This document shows, in pieces, positions 23,869 to 34,439 of a stretch of DNA of 64,000 nt. Made by a program: the position numbers and the translations under genes. The number at the start of each line of letters is the position of its first letter. Position 1 is the stretch's first letter. The notes beneath the pieces are model-generated. The model searched no databases. It was given only the letters and a program-made list of their open reading frames with translations, and was not told the DNA's origin. This stretch comes from Gammaproteobacteria bacterium (GTDB lineage Bacteria; Pseudomonadota; Gammaproteobacteria; UBA5861): contig JAKSCV010000068.1 in assembly GCA_022360445.1 (NCBI GenBank), positions 1 to 64,000 of the forward strand, written 5' to 3'.

Positions 23869-25083
23869 TTATTTTGCCAAAATCTTGAACTCAACACGCC
23901 GGTTGAGTTTACGGCCCTGTTTTGTCCGGTTATCTGCAATTGGCTCACTTTCACCGTAACCTCGAGGAACCATTCGTCGCATTTCAACGCCTTGTGATAC
24001 GAGGTAGTCTCGTACAGAGCGGGCTCTGCGATAGGACAGATCCAGATTGTATGCTTCTGATGCCGTACTATCGGTGTGTGCTTGAATTTCGACAACTATG
24101 CGTGGATACTTTTGAAGTTCCTGAGCAACACCATCTAAAAGAATTTTAGACTCCGGTAATAGTTTTGCGGAGTCGATTTCAAACTTCACGCCATTTAATG
24201 CGCCAGCAAAAAAGCAACCAACAGCATCAACTTGGGAGCCTCGAGGTGTTTTTGGACAAGCATCATCTTCATCACGGACACCGTCCTTGTCGGCATCATT
24301 GAAAATAGAACCTCCAACGATGGGCTTGACCACAATTGGATCGGGTATGGAAGAACCAGCGCCAACGCTCTCCAATGTCGATTGTCTTATTAAGTATGCG
24401 CTCTTGTTGCCACCAAATCGCCAGAGTGCGCTCACTGAAAAAAACTGTGCGTCTTTATCATACAATTCGATATCGGCACGTAGCGATACATTGCGGGGCA
24501 GCGCATATTCCAGGCCCCCACCCCAGTGGAGGTGAAAGTTATTCTTTGTTCGGGTATCCACATTGCCCTTGGAACCGGTTTGCAGGTTCCCAAGGCCGGC
24601 GCGCGCAAAAAATGACAGGCCTTTGCGTGTTTGAATACCTTGGGCTTTTTTAGTGTTATAAAAATAGTAAAGTGCACTAACACCAAGTACTTGATACTCA
24701 CTGGCGCCATCTGGATTCACACTGGTTTCACCCAAGTCGAAATAGTAGCCTTCGAGGGAGATTTTTTCGGCAAAGTCATATCCGACATAAAAGCCAATGC
24801 CCAAATCATTTTTATCATCAATACTGGAGCCTGCGGTCTTGACATTGGGTTCCAGTTGAGAAATCCCGAGTGTGCCACCTACGTACCATTGTGGAAAAAA
24901 TTCTGATGGGGTAGCGGGTGGTGTTTTTTTTGCTTTTGTATCTTTTAAACTTTTTTTCTCAACGACCGATGCCGAAGCAGTTGTCGGTTTTTCTTCGGAA
25001 CCCTCGGGGCTCTCTGCTGCAATAAGCGACAACGAAAGCATTGCCAAAGAGATCCCTGTGGCCGATTTTTTGAAAGTGTTCAT
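23869..25083 (-). CDS. OmpA family outer-membrane protein
   Basis: Protein of 404 residues. The start MNTFKKSATG at 25083 is chosen because GGAAGGA lies just upstream; the ATG at 25098 lacks a site. A signal peptide ends near SLIAAES. After a Lys/Thr-rich spacer comes an eight-strand OmpA-like barrel (about 65-220), then a short calcium-type loop FNDADKDGVRDEDDACPKTP, and the peptidoglycan-binding OmpA C-terminal domain (FEIDSAKLLPESK...HTDSTASEAYNLDLSYRRA...RKLNRRVEF). It links outer membrane and cell wall. It follows the TSP3 protein by 18 bases, so both are probably made from one transcript. Confidence 0.93.
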   Translation of the reverse strand: MNTFKKSATGISLAMLSLSLIAAESPEGSEEKPTTASASVVEKKSLKDTKAKKTPPATPSEFFPQWYVGGTLGISQLEPNVKTAGSSIDDKNDLGIGFYVGYDFAEKISLEGYYFDLGETSVNPDGASEYQVLGVSALYYFYNTKKAQGIQTRKGLSFFARAGLGNLQTGSKGNVDTRTKNNFHLHWGGGLEYALPRNVSLRADIELYDKDAQFFSVSALWRFGGNKSAYLIRQSTLESVGAGSSIPDPIVVKPIVGGSIFNDADKDGVRDEDDACPKTPRGSQVDAVGCFFAGALNGVKFEIDSAKLLPESKILLDGVAQELQKYPRIVVEIQAHTDSTASEAYNLDLSYRRARSVRDYLVSQGVEMRRMVPRGYGESEPIADNRTKQGRKLNRRVEFKILAK

Positions 25084-25101
25084 TGCTGATCCTTCCATGA
25101 A

Positions 25102-27051
25102 TTAATGTTGTGGGCCCACATGAAGCGGTTGTGAGTAAGGCTGTTTGCTGTGTTTAGTCTGGCGTCGGTATAGGCCCAGCACTATCAGTACGGCGATGAG
25201 AAATACGCCACTGCTGCCACCAACACCATTGACACCGGCTTTAACTACGGTGGTTGGGTCATCCTCAGCAGGTGGGGGGGTGGCGCCAGCAGGGTCCAGG
25301 TAGTCAGGAATGCCATCGTTATCGGTATCCGGAAGGGGAAGGGGTGTGCCGCCTGTTGATGTAGTGAACTCATCAGCAATGCCATTGTTGTTCCGATCAG
25401 GGTCCCGGGTATCATCAATGCCATCGGCATCACTATCTTGGCCGCCGGTCTGGTCTACGTCGGCCGTGTCATCAATGCCGTCGCCATCGCTATCGCCACC
25501 ACCGGTTTGATCAGCATCAACGGAGTCAGGGATGAAGTCACCATCCGCATCTGCCAGGCTGTCGACACGACCGTTGTTGTCGGCGTCTGTGCCACCGCCT
25601 TCAATGAGGTCTTTGAAATTATCGCCATCACTATCTCGATCCACATAATTTGGCTTATCATCGGCATCAACATCGCCTGGTCGAAGGGCTAACCCATTCT
25701 CATGGCTATCATCCAGCCCGTTGCCATTGTTATCTGTAAAGTCGTCAACTTTGGCGTCTCCGTCACTGTCTTCACCGCCGGCTTCGATGATGTCGGGTAT
25801 GCCATCATTGTCGCTGTCCAGGTCAAGGTAGTTCGGTTTGCTGTCATTGTCGTTATTAGGTATGGGGAGAGGAATCGTTGCGTAAGCATCGTGCAGGCCG
25901 TCTCCATCGCTATCGACCTGAGAGTCGACGAGCCCATTGCCGTCCTGGTCGGTGCCACCGGCTTCAACCAGGTCGCTAATACCATCGTTGTCGCTGTCCA
26001 GGTCAAAGGAGTTGACGACCCCGTCGTCATCGTCGTCGCGAGTGTCGTCTTCCTGATCATCCGGCACGCCGTCATTATCGTCATCACGGTCTTCGTCGTC
26101 GATGACGCCGTCGTTATCTGAATCCGAACCCACAGTCAGGTTAACCTGTACAGTGATTTTGCTGAGTGTACAACCGGTTGTATCAATGGTAGCAGTATAA
26201 TCAACGTCGTTTGAGCGCCAGAAATGTCGGGCATCGTTAACCGAATATTGGGTGTAGATTCCCAGCTGTAAATTATCAAACTCAGCTGGTGTGATGTCCG
26301 TAAGAGTGTAGTTCAGCGTTCTTGTCTCTTGGGGACTCGAACCCCAATCGCTCTCGGTTACAGAATCCGCCGCCAAGGGGTCATTGTTGGTTTTATTGAT
26401 CGAAGCAGCATAGCCTTGGCTGTCCCCGCTGGTTTTGGTTAATTGCCAGGTAAGGCTGGTTGTAATGATCGGTTTTTCTGGCGTGTGGCAACCCTGGTAG
26501 TTAGCGATAGGTTTAATGATGATACCAAGATAGCTGGTCGCTGCGGTTGTTGAAGGCTGAGGCCAATCGCCGGTAGGCTGCAAAGCGTCAAAAATAGGCT
26601 CTTGAGGACTTGCGCCAATGCGTGATCCAGCCGGGGTCGAATGACTTCGGCTGACAGAAATGGATCGTGCACTCTCTCTCCAGTCCTGCTCGGTGACCTC
26701 ATAGCTGAAGCTGTCAGCGCCTGAAAAGTCCGTAGGTGGTGTGTAACGAATTTGTCCATTTTCTATAGCGAGACTGCCTCCGTTATCACTGCTTGAATTA
26801 GGCAGCGTTAACGTTGAGGCATTTGGGGAGCCTCCATCATTTGCGAGCACGTTGAGTAGCTTGCTGGTATTGATCACCACAGAAAAATTGTCTGTACCTG
26901 CGGTTAAGTCAATCGGCCGATCTGAAATGCCGGCCCGTGTTGTGGTGCTAGCTAGGCTTGCCAATGCAGTTAAAGTGATCGCAGAGAAGAGCGGCAAGTT
27001 TTTTTTGTGTCGTTGGCTTGTGTTGCGATTTGTCAATCTGTAAACACACAT
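25102..27051 (-). CDS. Secreted thrombospondin type 3 repeat protein with C-terminal membrane anchor
   Basis: Protein of 649 residues. A signal peptide (about 1-40, LFSAITLTALASLASTTTRAG) is followed by a cadherin-like/Ig-like domain (LLNVLANDGG...YTPPTDFSGADSFSYEV), a non-repetitive region to about 310, then about ten thrombospondin type 3 calcium-binding repeats of the type DSDNDGIPD (about 315-600). The C-terminus has a Gly-rich stretch, one hydrophobic helix (GVFLIAVLIVLGLY) and Arg/Lys, which resembles a CTERM sorting tail. A calcium-stiffened stalk at the surface is the likely form. The OmpA gene follows by 18 bases and carries the same loop type, suggesting a physical partnership. Confidence 0.85.
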   Translation of the reverse strand: MCVYRLTNRNTSQRHKKNLPLFSAITLTALASLASTTTRAGISDRPIDLTAGTDNFSVVINTSKLLNVLANDGGSPNASTLTLPNSSSDNGGSLAIENGQIRYTPPTDFSGADSFSYEVTEQDWRESARSISVSRSHSTPAGSRIGASPQEPIFDALQPTGDWPQPSTTAATSYLGIIIKPIANYQGCHTPEKPIITTSLTWQLTKTSGDSQGYAASINKTNNDPLAADSVTESDWGSSPQETRTLNYTLTDITPAEFDNLQLGIYTQYSVNDARHFWRSNDVDYTATIDTTGCTLSKITVQVNLTVGSDSDNDGVIDDEDRDDDNDGVPDDQEDDTRDDDDDGVVNSFDLDSDNDGISDLVEAGGTDQDGNGLVDSQVDSDGDGLHDAYATIPLPIPNNDNDSKPNYLDLDSDNDGIPDIIEAGGEDSDGDAKVDDFTDNNGNGLDDSHENGLALRPGDVDADDKPNYVDRDSDGDNFKDLIEGGGTDADNNGRVDSLADADGDFIPDSVDADQTGGGDSDGDGIDDTADVDQTGGQDSDADGIDDTRDPDRNNNGIADEFTTSTGGTPLPLPDTDNDGIPDYLDPAGATPPPAEDDPTTVVKAGVNGVGGSSGVFLIAVLIVLGLYRRQTKHSKQPYSQPLHVGPQH

Positions 27052-29777: not shown

Positions 29778-30185
29778 TCAGGCCGGTGTAAACATGGGTA
29801 GTGCCGTACCTTCCCCCGTGTCTTGAAAAATAACGCTCACCGGCTGACCGATTGCAAGCGCATCGACATCGCACTCGACAATATTGGTCATCATTGTTGG
29901 GCCTTCTTCGAGCGTAACGTAAGCCATGACGTAAGGCACTGTTGCCTTACGCATCACACTATAACTGTAGATGGCGCCGCGTCCGGATGCTTCTGTCCAA
30001 GTTGTGTTATCGCTGAAGCAAAAAGGGCAGATCGTGCGTGGGTAGTGGTGCACTTCACCACAGGTGTTGCATTTTTTAACGAGCAATTTACCGTTGATCG
30101 CCGCTTCCCAGTAAGGTTTACTTTCATCGTTGACCACTGGCGCAGAGTTGTTTGGGTTCATGTTTTCTTTGTTTAAAATTTTCAT
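29778..30185 (-). CDS. DUF35 Zn-ribbon/OB-fold acyl-CoA-associated protein
   Basis: 135-residue protein with a rubredoxin-like zinc ribbon (CNTCGEVHHYPRTICPFC, about 39-56) followed by an OB fold (SGRGAIYSYSVMRKAT...VSVIFQDT). These proteins form complexes with thiolase-like enzymes, for example in bacterial steroid side-chain aldolases and in archaeal HMG-CoA synthesis, where they help bind or pass acyl-CoA. The ATG at 30185 overlaps the stop of the thiolase-like gene by four bases, so the two are coupled and probably form one complex. Confidence 0.93.
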   Translation of the reverse strand: MKILNKENMNPNNSAPVVNDESKPYWEAAINGKLLVKKCNTCGEVHHYPRTICPFCFSDNTTWTEASGRGAIYSYSVMRKATVPYVMAYVTLEEGPTMMTNIVECDVDALAIGQPVSVIFQDTGEGTALPMFTPA

Positions 30186-31357
30186 GTGTCTTCTCTCCCA
30201 AGAATCACTGTTGCGCTACCCATCCGGGTTCCGAGCGAACCGCCTGTGCCGTGTGCCAGTGCAATCTGGCAATCAGGTACCTGCACCTTGGGGTGCGCCT
30301 CATCTCGAAGCTGACGGACGGCTTCGACAACTTTTGTCATGCCGCCTCTGTTGGCGGGGTGGTTGTTGCATAATCCGCCGCCGTCGGTGTTAAACGGTAA
30401 TTTGCCGACACCGGATATCAGGTTGCCGTCAGACACAAATTGACCACCTTGACCTTTTTCACAGAAACCTAGATCTTCCAGTGTCTCCAGAACGGTGATC
30501 GTGAACGAATCATAAATAGATGCATAGTCAATATCCGACGGCTTAACGCCGGCTTCTTCAAATGCTCTGGGTCCGGACCACCGTGCGCCGGTGAAGGTGA
30601 GGTCCGTTCGACCACCCATTTGGTGTTTAGGAGACTCACCATGCCCCAGCACTTTAATGCATGTGCGTTTTAGGTCTTTGACCACTTCCGGACTCACGAC
30701 GACAAGGGCTCCACCACCGTCTGTGATGACACAGCAGTCCAGCCGATGCAAAGGGTCACTGATCATGGGGGAGTTAACAACGTCTTCAACAGTCAGAACT
30801 TTGCGCACGATAGCATGTTCATTATGTTGTGAGTGGTGTGAGGCGGCGACTTTAATCCAGGCAAGCTGCTCACTGGTAGTGCCAAATTCGTACATATGGC
30901 GCATGGCGGCCATACCATACATGTTGGTTACGGTGGTGCCGTAGGAAAATTCAAAGCCAGTTTCTGGTGCGTCCGGTCCGAAGGTTCTAGGCCGGGTACC
31001 GGTTGGCATGCCTTCGGCCTTCGGGCGTCCGGCGAGCGTGATCAATGCAACCTGGCACTTACCTGCAGCAATGGCAGCGGCCGCATGACCCACATGAGCC
31101 ACGTATGATGAACCGCCAATTTCGGTGGAATCGATGTGTTTGAGCCGGAGCCCCATGTAGTCGGCTAGGGATAACCCACCTAGCCCAGGGGCATCTCCTG
31201 CGCAGTAGTAAGCATCCACATCGTCTTTAGTTAGGCCGGCGTCCTCAAGGGCGCCTTTGGCCACTTCGGCGTGCAACTGGGGAAGTGAACGCCCGACGGC
31301 ATTTCGTATGGGATGTTCGTACGCCCCGGCAATATAGGCTTTACCTCTGATACTCAA
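30182..31357 (-). CDS. Thiolase-like protein (SCP-x/Ltp2 group), nucleophilic Cys not visible
   Basis: Thiolase-fold protein of 391 residues. A TTG at 31357 is chosen as start because GAGGAGG lies eight bases upstream and the family begins right there (SIRGKAYIAGAYEHP). In the place of the usual active-site Cys the sequence reads EIGGSSYVAHVGHAAAAIAAG, with Ser but no Cys. The C-terminal region has NTDGGGLCNNHPANRGG followed by EAVRQLRDEA. Loss of Cys, the GGGL motif and a DUF35 partner recall Ltp2-type retro-aldolases of steroid side-chain degradation. A true thiolase is the alternative. Which reaction it performs is inferred only. Confidence 0.85.
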   Translation of the reverse strand: MSIRGKAYIAGAYEHPIRNAVGRSLPQLHAEVAKGALEDAGLTKDDVDAYYCAGDAPGLGGLSLADYMGLRLKHIDSTEIGGSSYVAHVGHAAAAIAAGKCQVALITLAGRPKAEGMPTGTRPRTFGPDAPETGFEFSYGTTVTNMYGMAAMRHMYEFGTTSEQLAWIKVAASHHSQHNEHAIVRKVLTVEDVVNSPMISDPLHRLDCCVITDGGGALVVVSPEVVKDLKRTCIKVLGHGESPKHQMGGRTDLTFTGARWSGPRAFEEAGVKPSDIDYASIYDSFTITVLETLEDLGFCEKGQGGQFVSDGNLISGVGKLPFNTDGGGLCNNHPANRGGMTKVVEAVRQLRDEAHPKVQVPDCQIALAHGTGGSLGTRMGSATVILGREDT

Positions 31358-31412
31358 AGTATTGTCCTCCTCAAAAAAAGTAATTTTGTTATTAAAATGG
31401 GTTAACGAGCGC

Positions 31413-32597
31413 TTAGTAAGACTTAGGGAGACCCAACACCCGTTCGGCAATATGACAGAGAATCAGTTGCGGGCTGACGGGTGCGATGCGTGGAATCAGG
31501 CTTTCGCGGAGATAGCGCTCTACATGAAATTCTTTGGCGTAACCCATGCCGCCATGTGTCATCACAGCCTGGGTGCACGCCTTAAAAGAGGCTTCCGCTG
31601 CTAGGTATTTGGCGGCATTGGCAAGGTGGCCAACGTCGTGTCCCTGGTCATACAGATTAGCAGCTTTAAACGCCATCAGGTTGGCGGCTTCGAGTTCAGC
31701 CCAGCACTCTGCCAAGGGGTGTTGAATGCCTTGGTTTTTGCCGATTGGGCGATCAAAAACAACGCGATCACGGGCATACTGTACGGCTTTTCGGATGGCA
31801 GCACGCCCAAGACCTACGCTTCCTGCTGCGGCGAGAATGCGTTCTGGATTTAAGCCGTCGAGCAGGTAGTAGAAGCCTTTACCTTCATTGCCAATCAGAT
31901 CGTCTTCGGGGATGGGCAAGCCATCAAAAAAAACTTGATTGGAGTCTGAAGCTTTACGCCCCATTTTTTCAATTTCTCTCACTTCGATGTAGTTGCGGTC
32001 AAAATCCGTGTAAAAGAGGCTAAGCCCATCCACAGGGCGGCGTGTGTTTTCGATGGGCGTTGTGCGAGCAATTAACAGAATTTTAGTGGCGTGTTGGGCT
32101 GTGGAAGTCCAGATTTTTTGGCCGTCAACAATGTAATGCTTCCCTTTTTTGGTGGCTTTGGTCTTTAGTTTGGTAGTGTCGAGACCCGTATTCGGCTCGG
32201 TAACGCCAAAACAGGTGATTTCTTTGCGCTGGATGACGCGGGGCACCATGCGTTCGATTTGTTCGGGACGCCCGTATTTGATGACAGGGTTAAGCCCAAA
32301 TATGGGGTGTGCGGTGGATGACAACGCGGTAATGCCACCGCCGGATTCACCGATCGTCAATGTGAGTACCGCACCTTCGGTAATACCAAGCCCGGAGCCA
32401 CCGTATTCAAGCGGTGTATTGATTCCCAGCCAGCCGTGTTCGGCCAGTTCGGAAACAAAGTCTTCCGGAAACTGGCCGGTTTGGTCGCGTTCAAGCCAGT
32501 AGTCGTCGTTATAATTTGCGCAGAGCTTTTGCAGGCTTTCCCGCATTTCCATTTGGTCTGGGGTCAGCACGGTTGCGTCGTCGAAAAAGTCTTTCAT
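31413..32597 (-). CDS. Acyl-CoA dehydrogenase family protein
   Basis: FAD-dependent dehydrogenase of 394 residues that introduces the alpha-beta double bond into acyl-CoA. FAD/substrate motifs ITCFGVTEPNTGLDTT (about 125-140) and KIWTSTAQHATKILLIART are present, as is the C-terminal signature THGGMGYAKEFHVERYLRES. A GGAGGAAC site precedes the ATG. The gene runs into the thiolase-like/DUF35 pair 55 bases downstream on the same strand, suggesting one catabolic operon. Confidence 0.93.
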   Translation of the reverse strand: MKDFFDDATVLTPDQMEMRESLQKLCANYNDDYWLERDQTGQFPEDFVSELAEHGWLGINTPLEYGGSGLGITEGAVLTLTIGESGGGITALSSTAHPIFGLNPVIKYGRPEQIERMVPRVIQRKEITCFGVTEPNTGLDTTKLKTKATKKGKHYIVDGQKIWTSTAQHATKILLIARTTPIENTRRPVDGLSLFYTDFDRNYIEVREIEKMGRKASDSNQVFFDGLPIPEDDLIGNEGKGFYYLLDGLNPERILAAAGSVGLGRAAIRKAVQYARDRVVFDRPIGKNQGIQHPLAECWAELEAANLMAFKAANLYDQGHDVGHLANAAKYLAAEASFKACTQAVMTHGGMGYAKEFHVERYLRESLIPRIAPVSPQLILCHIAERVLGLPKSY

Positions 32598-32711: not shown

Positions 32712-32957
32712 TTAGCAACGGTTGCTCTGGGCCTTTTTGATGATGCGCGTTTGTGATGCTGGATATTGTGCAAGGGCGGCTTCGGGCCTGATGGGACGTT
32801 GGACCAGGTTGCCAAAACAGTTGGGGCAAATATTGCCTAGCACGTGGTTCGCGCAATGTTGACAAAATGTGCATTCGAATGAGCAAATCGTGGCTTCCGC
32901 CGATGCGGGCGGTAGGTCTTTGTTACAGCATTCGCAGTTAGGCCGAAGCTCCAACAT
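32712..32957 (-). CDS. DUF1272 zinc-ribbon-like protein
   Basis: 81-residue Cys-rich protein. The start MLELRPNCECCNKDLPP at 32957 has GAGAGG upstream; a longer reading frame to 33050 is not typical of the family. Cysteine pairs (CECC, CSFECTFCQHC, CPNC) suit two zinc sites in a RING/zinc-ribbon-like fold. DUF1272 proteins are common in Proteobacteria and have no assigned function. Confidence 0.9.
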   Translation of the reverse strand: MLELRPNCECCNKDLPPASAEATICSFECTFCQHCANHVLGNICPNCFGNLVQRPIRPEAALAQYPASQTRIIKKAQSNRC

Positions 32958-33161
32958 TGGGGTTACCTCTCTCATTAGCGTGTTGTATCTGTTGAGGTAT
33001 GACCATTTTTCAGCAAGTCGTCGGTTGCGCCGAACGGCACTTGTTAGCAAAGGTAATGGTCTATTGGTTCAATGTATATTACTTTCAAGCTTAAAAGAAG
33101 CCAAGCTCCGTGCTTTGAGATAGTCTCTTTCGGGTGGCTGGTTTAAAGTGGCTTATCCGTT

Positions 33162-34439
33162 TTATTGATAGAGTGCGCGCACCTGGTGCCAATCGCGATC
33201 GAGCTTTTCCCGGTCATCCGGGTGGGCAATGTTGATGAGTGCCTTGGCTCTTTCGTTCAATGTGCGCCCGTACAGGTTCGCCAAGCCATATTCCGTCACA
33301 ATGTAGTGAACGTGAGCGCGGGTTGTGACAACGCCCGCGCCGGGGTGCAGGGAAGCGACCAGACGCGACTGTCCCTTACGTGTCCGGCTAGGGAGGGCGA
33401 TGATCGGTTTACCTCCTTCAGAGAGAGAGGCCCCTCGTATAAAATCCATTTGCCCACCCACACCGGAAATAATCCGATGGCCAATAGAGTCCGCACAGAC
33501 TTGTCCTGTCAAGTCCACTTGCACTGCTGAGTTGATGGCTGCAACGCTGGGGTTTTTAGCGATTTCGGATGGGGAGTTGATCCAGTCGATCCGTGCTTGA
33601 ATGATGGAGGGGTTGTCGTCAATGAAATCATAAACTCGCTTTGTGCCAGCGATAAACCCTGAGACGGTTTTGCCCCGATGGTTTTTTTTTCTTGAATTAT
33701 CAATCACGCCGGATTCCAGTAAATTCAATAAGCCATCGGACCACATTTCTGTGTGGACACCCAGGTGCTGGTGATTTGCCAACGCATTGAGCACTGCATT
33801 TGGGATTGCGCCGATACCCGTTTGTATAGTTGCACCATCGTCGATCAGGCTGGCTGTGTGTTGACCAATCGCGATTTCAATATCCGTCAAGTGGGGAGGT
33901 GGGCTTTCTGGCAATGGATCGTCGACTTCAATAACGTGATCAAGCTGGGAAATGTGGATAAACCCATCTCCGTGCACACGTGGCATTTGATGATTGATTT
34001 GGGCAATCACCATCCTTGCGCAGCTGACGGCTTCCAAAGCGACATCCACGCTGCAGCCCAGCGTACAAAAACCGTGTTCATCGGGTGGCGAAAGATGCAT
34101 GAGTGCGATGTCAATTGGCCGCTCTCCGGAACGAAACAATGCGGGAATCTCAGATAGCAGGCAGGGCAGGTAGTCAACACGTTCGCCGTCATAGTGGGGC
34201 CTGATATTTCCGCCCACAAACAGATTGGCCACGCGAAAACTGTCTTTGAATATTGGTTTAGCGTAAGCGGCTTCCCCGTCAGTATGTAAATGCATAATTT
34301 CAACATTTTCCAGCCGGCTTGCGTGGGCCATGAGTCCATGAATTAATCGGTGTGGCGTAGCGGCGGCCCCATGGATAAAAATGCGATCGCCTGATTTAAC
34401 CGCAGATAAAGCATTTTCAGCAGAAAGGTGTTTTTTCAT
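33162..34439 (-). CDS. Acetyl-CoA hydrolase/transferase family protein
   Basis: Class I-type CoA-transferase of 425 residues (Cat1/4-hydroxybutyrate CoA-transferase group). Motifs: TIQTGIGAIPNAVL (about 218), the catalytic-type glutamate in GVHTEMWSDGLLNLLESGVI, and the C-terminal HYIVTEYGLANLYGRTLNERAKALI. It could activate short acids with acetyl-CoA or release CoA. The gene stands between the acyl-CoA dehydrogenase cluster and dksA and is transcribed alone. Confidence 0.92.
   Translation of the reverse strand: MKKHLSAENALSAVKSGDRIFIHGAAATPHRLIHGLMAHASRLENVEIMHLHTDGEAAYAKPIFKDSFRVANLFVGGNIRPHYDGERVDYLPCLLSEIPALFRSGERPIDIALMHLSPPDEHGFCTLGCSVDVALEAVSCARMVIAQINHQMPRVHGDGFIHISQLDHVIEVDDPLPESPPPHLTDIEIAIGQHTASLIDDGATIQTGIGAIPNAVLNALANHQHLGVHTEMWSDGLLNLLESGVIDNSRKKNHRGKTVSGFIAGTKRVYDFIDDNPSIIQARIDWINSPSEIAKNPSVAAINSAVQVDLTGQVCADSIGHRIISGVGGQMDFIRGASLSEGGKPIIALPSRTRKGQSRLVASLHPGAGVVTTRAHVHYIVTEYGLANLYGRTLNERAKALINIAHPDDREKLDRDWHQVRALYQ

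What the first reader, a model, noticed from the sequence alone, without database searches (positions are those of the whole stretch)
29778..32597. Thiolase-like/DUF35 pair that may be a retro-aldolase
Seen: the thiolase-like protein lacks the usual active-site Cys (EIGGSSYVAHVGHA), has GGGL near its end, is coupled by ATGA to a DUF35 protein and follows an acyl-CoA dehydrogenase. Established: Ltp2-type proteins with DUF35 partners cleave steroid side-chain acyl-CoAs by retro-aldol reaction. Inference: this cluster may shorten a branched or steroid-like side chain.
Basis: partly seen in the sequence, partly recalled or inferred. Interest (0 to 1): 0.5.

Follow-up and report, generated by a model that had tools for sequence, protein, structure and literature searches.

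The report
Cys-less thiolase-like enzyme with DUF35 partner
A widespread but uncharacterised enzyme pair, built like a fat-breaking thiolase that has lost its key cysteine, probably splits a hydroxylated acyl-CoA in two by a reverse aldol reaction; it is a relative of, but not the same as, the known steroid side-chain enzymes, and steroids are unlikely to be its substrate.

Summary
On the minus strand lie an acyl-CoA dehydrogenase (31413-32597), a thiolase-like protein (likely start TTG 31357, stop 30182) and a DUF35 protein (29778-30185), the last two joined by ATGA. The nucleophile Cys is Gly (80 of 80 orthologs). The protein is a strong member of NCBIfam NF006010/PRK08142, a family without an assigned reaction. 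It falls in the Cys-less half of the SCP2-type thiolases with Ltp2, Sal and the ibuprofen protein IpfD (100/100 branch), in its own clade beside 4u4e. The Ltp2/Sal base tyrosine is kept (Y282 in YDSF, 80 of 80); the second Ltp2 tyrosine (Y344) is an invariant His (H333, 80 of 80), and Sal's cysteine is Ser. So: a retro-aldolase class is likely; membership of Ltp2 is not; a steroid substrate is unlikely (no KshA_C match in this genome, one weak match over cut-off in 33 ortholog genomes; one Mycobacterium plasmid has both). Best reading: an acyl-CoA retro-aldolase using a Tyr/His pair, beside an isovaleryl-type dehydrogenase, cutting a branched or short hydroxyacyl-CoA. Activity and substrate are unshown. 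Interest moderate.

The parts
30182..31357 (-). thiolase-like protein, 391 aa, TTG start, NF006010/PRK08142 family
   Evidence: NF006010 712.8 bits vs cut-off 462; GGAGG at 31366-31370 and TTG at 31357; AlphaFold model pLDDT 75.8, pTM 0.83, nearest solved folds 9myr CtSal Z 45.8, 4u4e Z 44.8, 6ok1 TcLtp2 Z 44.5, about tied
29778..30185 (-). DUF35 partner (ChsH2-type zinc ribbon with CxxC-CxxC, plus OB fold), ATGA overlap with the thiolase-like gene
   Evidence: PF01796 69.2 bits, PF12172 45.8 bits, both over cut-off; best solved match 6ok1_B ChsH2
31413..32597 (-). acyl-CoA dehydrogenase, 394 aa, Glu252 (NPERI) at the helix-G base position, Pro at the C-terminal position where YEGT-type enzymes have Glu
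   Evidence: Pfam; residues aligned in the window protein and 8 homologs from 7 loci; nearest solved 1ws9 212.7 bits, isovaleryl-CoA dehydrogenase 1ivh 178.3 bits
31112..31114 (-). codon of Gly82, in the column of the thiolase nucleophile Cys
   Evidence: 80 of 80 orthologs Gly; Cys in 4 of 4 Cys-thiolase references
30512..30514 (-). codon of Tyr282 (YDSF), column of Ltp2 Tyr294 and Sal Tyr302; proposed base
   Evidence: 80 of 80 orthologs, 10 of 10 plasmid orthologs
30359..30361 (-). codon of His333 (LCNNHP), column of Ltp2 Tyr344, Sal Gln352 and the thiolase HP histidine; proposed acid
   Evidence: 80 of 80 orthologs, 10 of 10 plasmid orthologs
31842..31844 (-). codon of Glu252 of the acyl-CoA dehydrogenase, proposed helix-G base
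   Evidence: Glu in the window protein and all 8 aligned homologs

Best explanation
The thiolase-like protein and the DUF35 protein form a complex that cleaves a beta-hydroxyacyl-CoA by a retro-aldol reaction, releasing an aldehyde or ketone and a shorter acyl-CoA (acetyl- or propionyl-CoA). Tyr282 takes the proton from the beta-hydroxyl; His333, helped perhaps by Ser284, protonates the enolate; the missing Cys rules out ordinary thiolysis. The neighbouring dehydrogenase makes the 2,3-enoyl-CoA, probably of a beta-branched or short acyl-CoA, and a hydratase encoded elsewhere adds water. Shown: gene order, Cys loss, invariant Tyr/Ser/His, clade, DUF35 pairing. Inferred: the activity, the roles of the residues, the complex, the substrate type. 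Steroids are not the likely substrate.
For: Cys to Gly in 80 of 80 orthologs, with Tyr282, Ser284 and His333 each 80 of 80, and Tyr/Ser/His 10 of 10 in plasmid orthologs from Proteobacteria, Actinomycetota and a haloarchaeon. Cys-less group split from Cys thiolases at 100/100. In 43 rows Gly at the nucleophile column goes with Tyr at the YD position in 25, Cys or Ser goes with His in 16 and with Ala in 1; one fragment has a gap (the 43 include the window and three more members of its family and some near-copies from the sister genome; 11 further window-family rows, all Gly/Tyr, were left out). The two characterised relatives with Tyr there, Ltp2 and Sal, are retro-aldolases in which this Tyr is essential (PMC12329534). 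DUF35 adjacent in 80 of 80 and annotated directly downstream in 9 of 10 plasmid loci. Nearest folds are Sal, 4u4e and Ltp2. IpfD, whose disruption gives an Ibu-minus mutant and to which release of propionyl-CoA is ascribed (PMC9195938 passages), is Cys-less with Tyr too, so the architecture is not limited to steroids. The dehydrogenase has Glu at the helix-G position.
Against: No member of this clade has a measured activity known to me, and none showed in the searches made. The Tyr/His pair is new relative to Ltp2 (Tyr/Tyr) and Sal (Tyr/Cys); His333 lies in a stretch of the model with pLDDT under 50 (331-338), so its geometry is unproven. The Cys-Gly/His-Tyr coupling traces to one branch of the tree and so may be one event. 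His333 is also the thiolase HP histidine, so it may only be ancestral. No hydratase lies in the window cluster. The dehydrogenase ortholog is directly upstream in only 8 of 80 loci. In Sal, replacing the Cys of the motif by Ser abolished activity, so Ser284 cannot be assumed to do its work.
Confidence: 0.6

Rival explanations
1. It is a true steroid side-chain aldolase (Ltp2 or Sal function) and the cluster shortens a sterol or bile-acid side chain.
For: Fold and sequence relatives include Ltp2 and Sal; DUF35 partner; Tyr294/302 equivalent kept. A Mycobacterium branderi plasmid bears both an ortholog (L146) and three KshA_C proteins.
Against: Own clade; Tyr344 and Cys304 equivalents replaced; KshA_C absent in this genome, over cut-off in 1 of 33 ortholog genomes at 31.2 bits, with one more below cut-off at 20.8 bits, against 82-111 bits for the three Mycobacterium matches; orthologs in very different neighbourhoods. 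The same genome has other relatives that look closer to the steroid enzymes by motif: L015 with Tyr in the Y344 column and L013 with YDCF.
Confidence: 0.05
2. It is a Cys-independent acyl-CoA enzyme of another kind: a hydrolytic or decarboxylating retro-Claisen enzyme that uses His333 and Tyr282 on a 3-oxo- or malonyl-type CoA.
For: It keeps the thiolase HP histidine, unlike Ltp2 and Sal; TbSLP, with the YDCF motif, shows slow malonyl-CoA decarboxylation (kcat 0.005 per s, quoted in PMC12329534).
Against: Sal showed no malonyl-CoA decarboxylation in the same paper; the His that thiolases have at the YD position is Tyr here.
Confidence: 0.2
3. It runs in the forward direction, joining an acyl-CoA enolate to an aldehyde or ketone (aldol or Claisen-type synthesis).
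For: Retro-aldol reactions are reversible; DUF35 partners also occur in synthetic acyltransferases such as PhlABC (one search lists PhlB).
Against: Where neighbours are recognisable they are catabolic types: dehydrogenases, hydratases, CoA transferases, CoA ligases, CitE-type lyases.
Confidence: 0.08
4. It is an ordinary thiolase misread because the Cys lies elsewhere.
For: Invariant Cys330 in LCNNHP (80 of 80; 10 of 10).
Against: Cys330 is not in the nucleophile column; that column is Gly in 80 of 80; tree.
Confidence: 0.03

Closest known systems
NCBIfam NF006010 / PRK08142 (thiolase domain-containing protein)
   Same: 712.8 bits over a 388-position model, cut-off 462: the same family
   Different: nothing seen; the model's description gives no specific reaction
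4u4e, putative thiolase of Sphaerobacter thermophilus (solved; title gives no function)
   Same: 47.9% identity over 374 aligned residues; Gly nucleophile column, YDSF, HP histidine; its group with PRK06158-like proteins is sister to the window clade (94/89 and 98/92)
   Different: THPGMYGM loop instead of NHPANRGGM
TcLtp2-ChsH2(DUF35), 6ok1
   Same: Cys-less thiolase fold, DUF35 partner, base Tyr in YDxF
   Different: 34.3% identity; YDHF, Tyr344 instead of His; separate in the trees; steroid substrate
CtSal-Shy(DUF35), 9myr
   Same: Cys-less, YDxF Tyr, fold Z 45.8
   Different: 33.1% identity; catalytic Cys304 is Ser here; Gln352 is His; its DUF35 is in one protein with a MaoC domain (abstract in the listing)
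IpfD/IpfE of Rhizorhabdus wittichii pIBU218 (ibuprofen)
   Same: Cys-less protein with Tyr (YDAF) next to a DUF35 gene
   Different: 31.6% identity; Tyr in the Y344 column; groups with Ltp2 (88/83) on a long branch; I identified the gene by position, as the record names it hypothetical protein
BbsAB benzoylsuccinyl-CoA thiolase, 7pxp
   Same: thiolase/DUF35 pair
   Different: has the nucleophile Cys and HDAF; on the Cys side of the tree

Membership tests
NF006010 / PRK08142 | score over the curated cut-off | tested here: met
   712.8 vs 462 bits, model positions 1-388 of 388
Ltp2 steroid aldolase | no nucleophile Cys | tested here: met
   Gly82, 80 of 80 orthologs
Ltp2 steroid aldolase | base Tyr294 in YDHF | tested here: met
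   Tyr282 in YDSF, 80 of 80; the third motif residue is Ser, not His
Ltp2 steroid aldolase | acid Tyr344 | tested here: not met
   His333 in that column, 80 of 80
Ltp2 steroid aldolase | groups with TcLtp2 in a tree | tested here: not met
   TcLtp2 groups with the pIBU218 lipid-transfer protein (100/100); with own-genome L015 at 100/98 (flagged there as a join of long branches) but only 81/59; the window clade is separate in both
Ltp2 steroid aldolase | cleaves a C3 steroid side chain | not testable with these tools
   needs an assay; genome content speaks against it
Sal bile-acid aldolase | catalytic Tyr302 and Cys304 (YDCY) | tested here: not met
   Tyr kept, Cys304 column is Ser284, 80 of 80
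Sal bile-acid aldolase | DUF35 in one protein with a MaoC hydratase (Shy) | tested here: not met
   separate 135-aa DUF35 protein
Cys-dependent thiolase (AACT, SCP2, BbsB) | nucleophile Cys and HDxF | tested here: not met
   Gly82 and Tyr282; outside that group at 100/100
DUF35/ChsH2 | zinc ribbon plus OB fold | tested here: met
   PF12172 and PF01796 over cut-off; CxxC-CxxC in the window protein
thiolase-fold retro-aldolases as a working class | measured retro-aldol cleavage of a beta-hydroxyacyl-CoA | not testable with these tools
   no assay possible

The most novel reading that the evidence does not exclude
A third catalytic solution for retro-aldol cleavage in the thiolase fold (Tyr base with the old thiolase HP histidine as acid), used by a large enzyme family shared by Proteobacteria, Actinomycetota and haloarchaea for one common, still unnamed non-steroid acyl-CoA, possibly a beta-branched or dicarboxylic one.
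Probability: 0.35. Interest if true: 0.6.

Novelty: new variant of a known kind. Interest (0 to 1): 0.4.

Why it matters
Public records call these proteins thiolase, thiolase domain-containing protein or acetyl-CoA acetyltransferase; if they are aldolases, the pathways around them are mis-drawn. The family is common (42 of 443 matching plasmid records at 60-80% identity) and its model names no reaction. The difference at one position (Tyr in Ltp2 and IpfD, Gln in Sal, His here) gives a direct test of how the fold was re-used, and a non-steroid aldolase would be of use in making aldehydes and ketones.

Tried and rejected
Rejected: canonical thiolase (Cys column is Gly, tree). Rejected: Ltp2 or Sal membership (residues, tree). 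Set aside: a steroid substrate (KshA_C test, with positive control). I gave 34 of the 80 ortholog loci to that test and 33 genomes were searched (L031's is not held); no completeness is given for these 33, and a divergent oxygenase could be missed. The record that served as positive control itself bears an ortholog (L146), which is a case against my reading.

Substrate from neighbours: tried on 80 loci and on 10 of the 40 listed plasmid hits. No neighbour but DUF35 is constant. A recurring operon in 8 of 80 loci (SDR, IclR, dehydrogenase, thiolase-like, DUF35, CaiB, MaoC, CitE, enoyl hydratase, not all in each; MaoC and CitE checked with Pfam, SDR, IclR, CaiB and hydratase named by eye) suggested a leucine-like or itaconate-like diacid route, but it stays a guess. 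The window genome holds a MaoC-CitE pair on two small contigs that are 92.5% identical. The CoA transferase upstream in the window (33162-34439) has a 34% homolog in the Rhodococcus DK17 cluster and none in the 80 loci at E 1e-15, so I do not count it as a part. The first gene calls were spoiled by antisense ORFs in high-GC loci and were redone with codon scoring; the gene caller is home-made, and its misses of DUF35 genes (10 of 80) were corrected by tblastn. Locating IpfD: it was not among the 60 rows listed by either of two homology searches (of 566 records, of 384), so the plasmid was fetched by its accession. Papers: no paper holds PRK08142 and none of the listings showed work on this clade by title or abstract start; the 2019 Ltp2 paper is not held, so its residues are taken from PMC12329534. 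The helix-G base of isovaleryl-CoA dehydrogenase and the C-terminal YEGT Glu of other acyl-CoA dehydrogenases are recalled, from no call. Structure: one AlphaFold job on the window protein with 19 orthologs; the His333 loop is too uncertain for geometry. The trees used 20 of 80 orthologs and 7 of 80 plus 4 of 10 plasmid orthologs.
Full report
What is there. Three minus-strand genes run in the order acyl-CoA dehydrogenase (31413-32597), thiolase-like protein, DUF35 protein (29778-30185). The thiolase-like gene most likely starts at TTG 31357 behind a GGAGG, 55 bases after the dehydrogenase stop, and overlaps the DUF35 start by ATGA. Domains: Thiolase_C_1 (Thiolase_N and Thiolase_C under cut-off); zf-ChsH2 plus OB_ChsH2_C; the acyl-CoA dehydrogenase domains. 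The thiolase-like protein belongs to NF006010/PRK08142 (712.8 bits, cut-off 462). Upstream on the same strand lie a DUF1272 gene (32712-33050) and an acetyl-CoA hydrolase/transferase (33162-34439), whose link to the cluster is unproven.

Is it more than chance. The DUF35 gene is adjacent in all 80. On plasmids, 443 records match at E 1e-20, 42 of them at 60-80% identity, among them Cupriavidus, Variovorax, Rhodococcus, Mycobacterium and the haloarchaea Natrinema and Halomarina. Among 56 genomes searched as relatives (the own genome and one of the same genus included), 4 have a match over the family cut-off. So the pair is a conserved, widely spread unit that is absent from most relatives of its class sampled there.

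Active site. With sequences of solved relatives, the nucleophile column is Cys in AACT (7yvy, 6esq), BbsB and SCP2-thiolase, and Gly in the window protein and in 80 of 80 orthologs. The HDxF histidine of those thiolases is Tyr282 (YDSF), 80 of 80. That column holds Tyr294 of TcLtp2 and Tyr302 of CtSal, which PMC12329534 (outline with abstract, section 9 and part 1 of section 11 seen) reports as catalytic bases. The column of TcLtp2 Tyr344 and CtSal Gln352 holds His333, 80 of 80; it is the histidine of the thiolase HP motif. The column of Sal's essential Cys304 holds Ser284, 80 of 80; in Sal itself a Cys304Ser change abolished activity. A further histidine, His369 in HGTGG, is 77 of 80 and 6 of 10 in plasmid orthologs, whereas Tyr282, Ser284 and His333 are 10 of 10 there. 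In 43 rows Gly at the nucleophile always goes with Tyr (25), Cys or Ser with His (16) or Ala (1); one fragment has a gap. Those 43 include the window, three more members of its family and near-copies from the sister genome; eleven further window-family rows, all Gly/Tyr, were left out of the count. Since the Cys-less proteins form one side of a single branch, this may be one ancient switch.

Phylogeny. Two IQ-TREE trees (37 and 30 rows) put the Cys thiolases on one side of a 100/100 branch and the Cys-less proteins on the other. The window family is a 100/100 clade, next to 4u4e and PRK06158-like proteins of the same genome (94/89; 98/92). TcLtp2 groups with a lipid-transfer protein of pIBU218 (100/100); its join with own-genome L015 was 100/98, where the program warned of long branches meeting, and 81/59. 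CtSal stands alone. Deep branches among the Cys-less groups are long and partly weak, and the bootstrap of the second tree had not settled; I rely only on the Cys/Cys-less split and on the window clade. An AlphaFold model (pLDDT 75.8, pTM 0.83) matches 9myr, 4u4e and 6ok1 best (Z 45.8, 44.8, 44.5; about tied), before archaeal thiolase 7yvy (42.6); Foldseek ranks 4u4e first. The loop with His333 is below pLDDT 50.

Context. In the 80 loci, same-strand runs contain an acyl-CoA dehydrogenase in 15, an SDR in 15, a MaoC hydratase in 11, an enoyl-CoA hydratase in 9 and a CitE-type lyase in 5 (home-made gene calling and profiles; some family names given by eye). An ortholog of the window dehydrogenase lies directly upstream in 8 (61.7-76.8% identity, the highest a partial match at a contig end), in operons of the same kind. 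Five Roseomonas-type loci have a CoA ligase (by eye), a MaoC hydratase and two dehydrogenases before the pair, an order that recalls the dehydrogenase, hydratase, aldolase sequence of steroid side-chain operons. Ten plasmid loci show other settings: P450 cluster, pca/pobA genes, tricarballylate genes, CoA ligases, tripartite tricarboxylate transporters; the DUF35 gene is annotated directly downstream in 9 of 10. Where neighbours are recognisable they are catabolic types, but no substrate is common to all.

The dehydrogenase. Glu252 in NPERI is kept in the window protein and in 8 homologs, while the C-terminal position where SCAD/MCAD-type enzymes have Glu is Pro. From recall, a base on helix G is the isovaleryl-CoA and long-chain dehydrogenase pattern. 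This agrees with a beta-branched substrate but does not prove it; the nearest solved protein is 1ws9 (212.7 bits), with isovaleryl-CoA dehydrogenase 1ivh at 178.3 bits.

Steroids. KshA_C (PF19298), my marker for aerobic steroid ring opening, gives nothing in the window genome (97.9% complete). In 33 ortholog genomes it gives one match over cut-off (31.2 bits) and one below it (20.8 bits). As a positive control the same search of four plasmid records finds three matches of 82-111 bits, all on a Mycobacterium branderi plasmid, and one below cut-off on another; the Mycobacterium plasmid also bears an ortholog of the window protein, so the two can occur together. The window genome has ten other members of the superfamily, of which L015 has Tyr in the Y344 column and L013 the YDCF motif; if any protein here acted on steroid side chains, those would be the first candidates.

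Non-steroid precedent. In R. wittichii MPO218 an insertion in ipfD gives an Ibu-minus mutant, and the authors ascribe the release of propionyl-CoA to the ipfDE-encoded thiolase (PMC9195938, passages only). The protein I take to be IpfD from its position (L150) is Cys-less, with YDAF and Tyr in the Y344 column. So Cys-less thiolase-like/DUF35 pairs are not limited to steroids.

Mechanism. I commit to a retro-aldol cleavage with Tyr282 as base and His333 as acid (0.6 for the retro-aldolase class, lower for the exact residues). Activity, complex and substrate are not shown.

Verdict. A conserved, unassigned family and a variant active site make it worth a bench test, but the architecture itself is known.

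Noticed in passing
own genome: L009-L018 (G000 contigs C85, C63, C88, C30, C56, C5, C97), plus C15: Besides the window protein the genome has ten further SCP2-thiolase-like proteins and, window included, nine DUF35 matches. Of nine paralogs aligned, six are Cys-less; several sit beside genes that look by eye like dehydrogenases, MaoC proteins or CoA transferases.
   Followed up: partly
L015 (G000:C63 12880-13947) and L013 (G000:C85 241164-242282): One paralog has Tyr in the Ltp2 Tyr344 column (GGHLCEGY) and lies near genes that look like a CoA ligase, a dehydrogenase and an SDR; the other has a Sal-like YDCF motif and lies near two MaoC-like and two CoA-transferase-like genes (neighbours by eye).
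   Followed up: partly
L019, L031, L045, L047, L061, L086: Some ortholog loci have a DUF35 partner whose zinc-ribbon cysteines are largely lost (SPFT in place of the second CxxC). 20 of 80 loci did not show the CxxC-CxxC pattern; of 9 of those 20 looked at, these 6 showed the variant, L079 looked disrupted and 2 gave no match.
   Followed up: partly
G000 contigs C8 (L157) and C83 (L158): Two small contigs carry similar genes (MaoC, CitE, others) at 92.5% identity over 5.25 kb, which points to mixed strains in the assembly or a duplication.
   Followed up: partly
33162-34439 and 32712-33050: An acetyl-CoA hydrolase/transferase and a DUF1272 protein lie upstream on the same strand; a 34% homolog of the transferase sits in the Rhodococcus DK17 plasmid cluster that holds the thiolase-like gene.
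   Followed up: partly
L041, L049, L053, L058: In these gammaproteobacterial loci the pair follows a gene row that by eye looks like hfq-hflX-hflK-hflC-hisZ-purA, with no dehydrogenase found in the run.
   Followed up: no
23869-25098 and 25102-27051: An OmpA-like protein and a large protein with many Asp-rich calcium-binding-type repeats lie side by side (by eye); they look like a surface pair.
   Followed up: no
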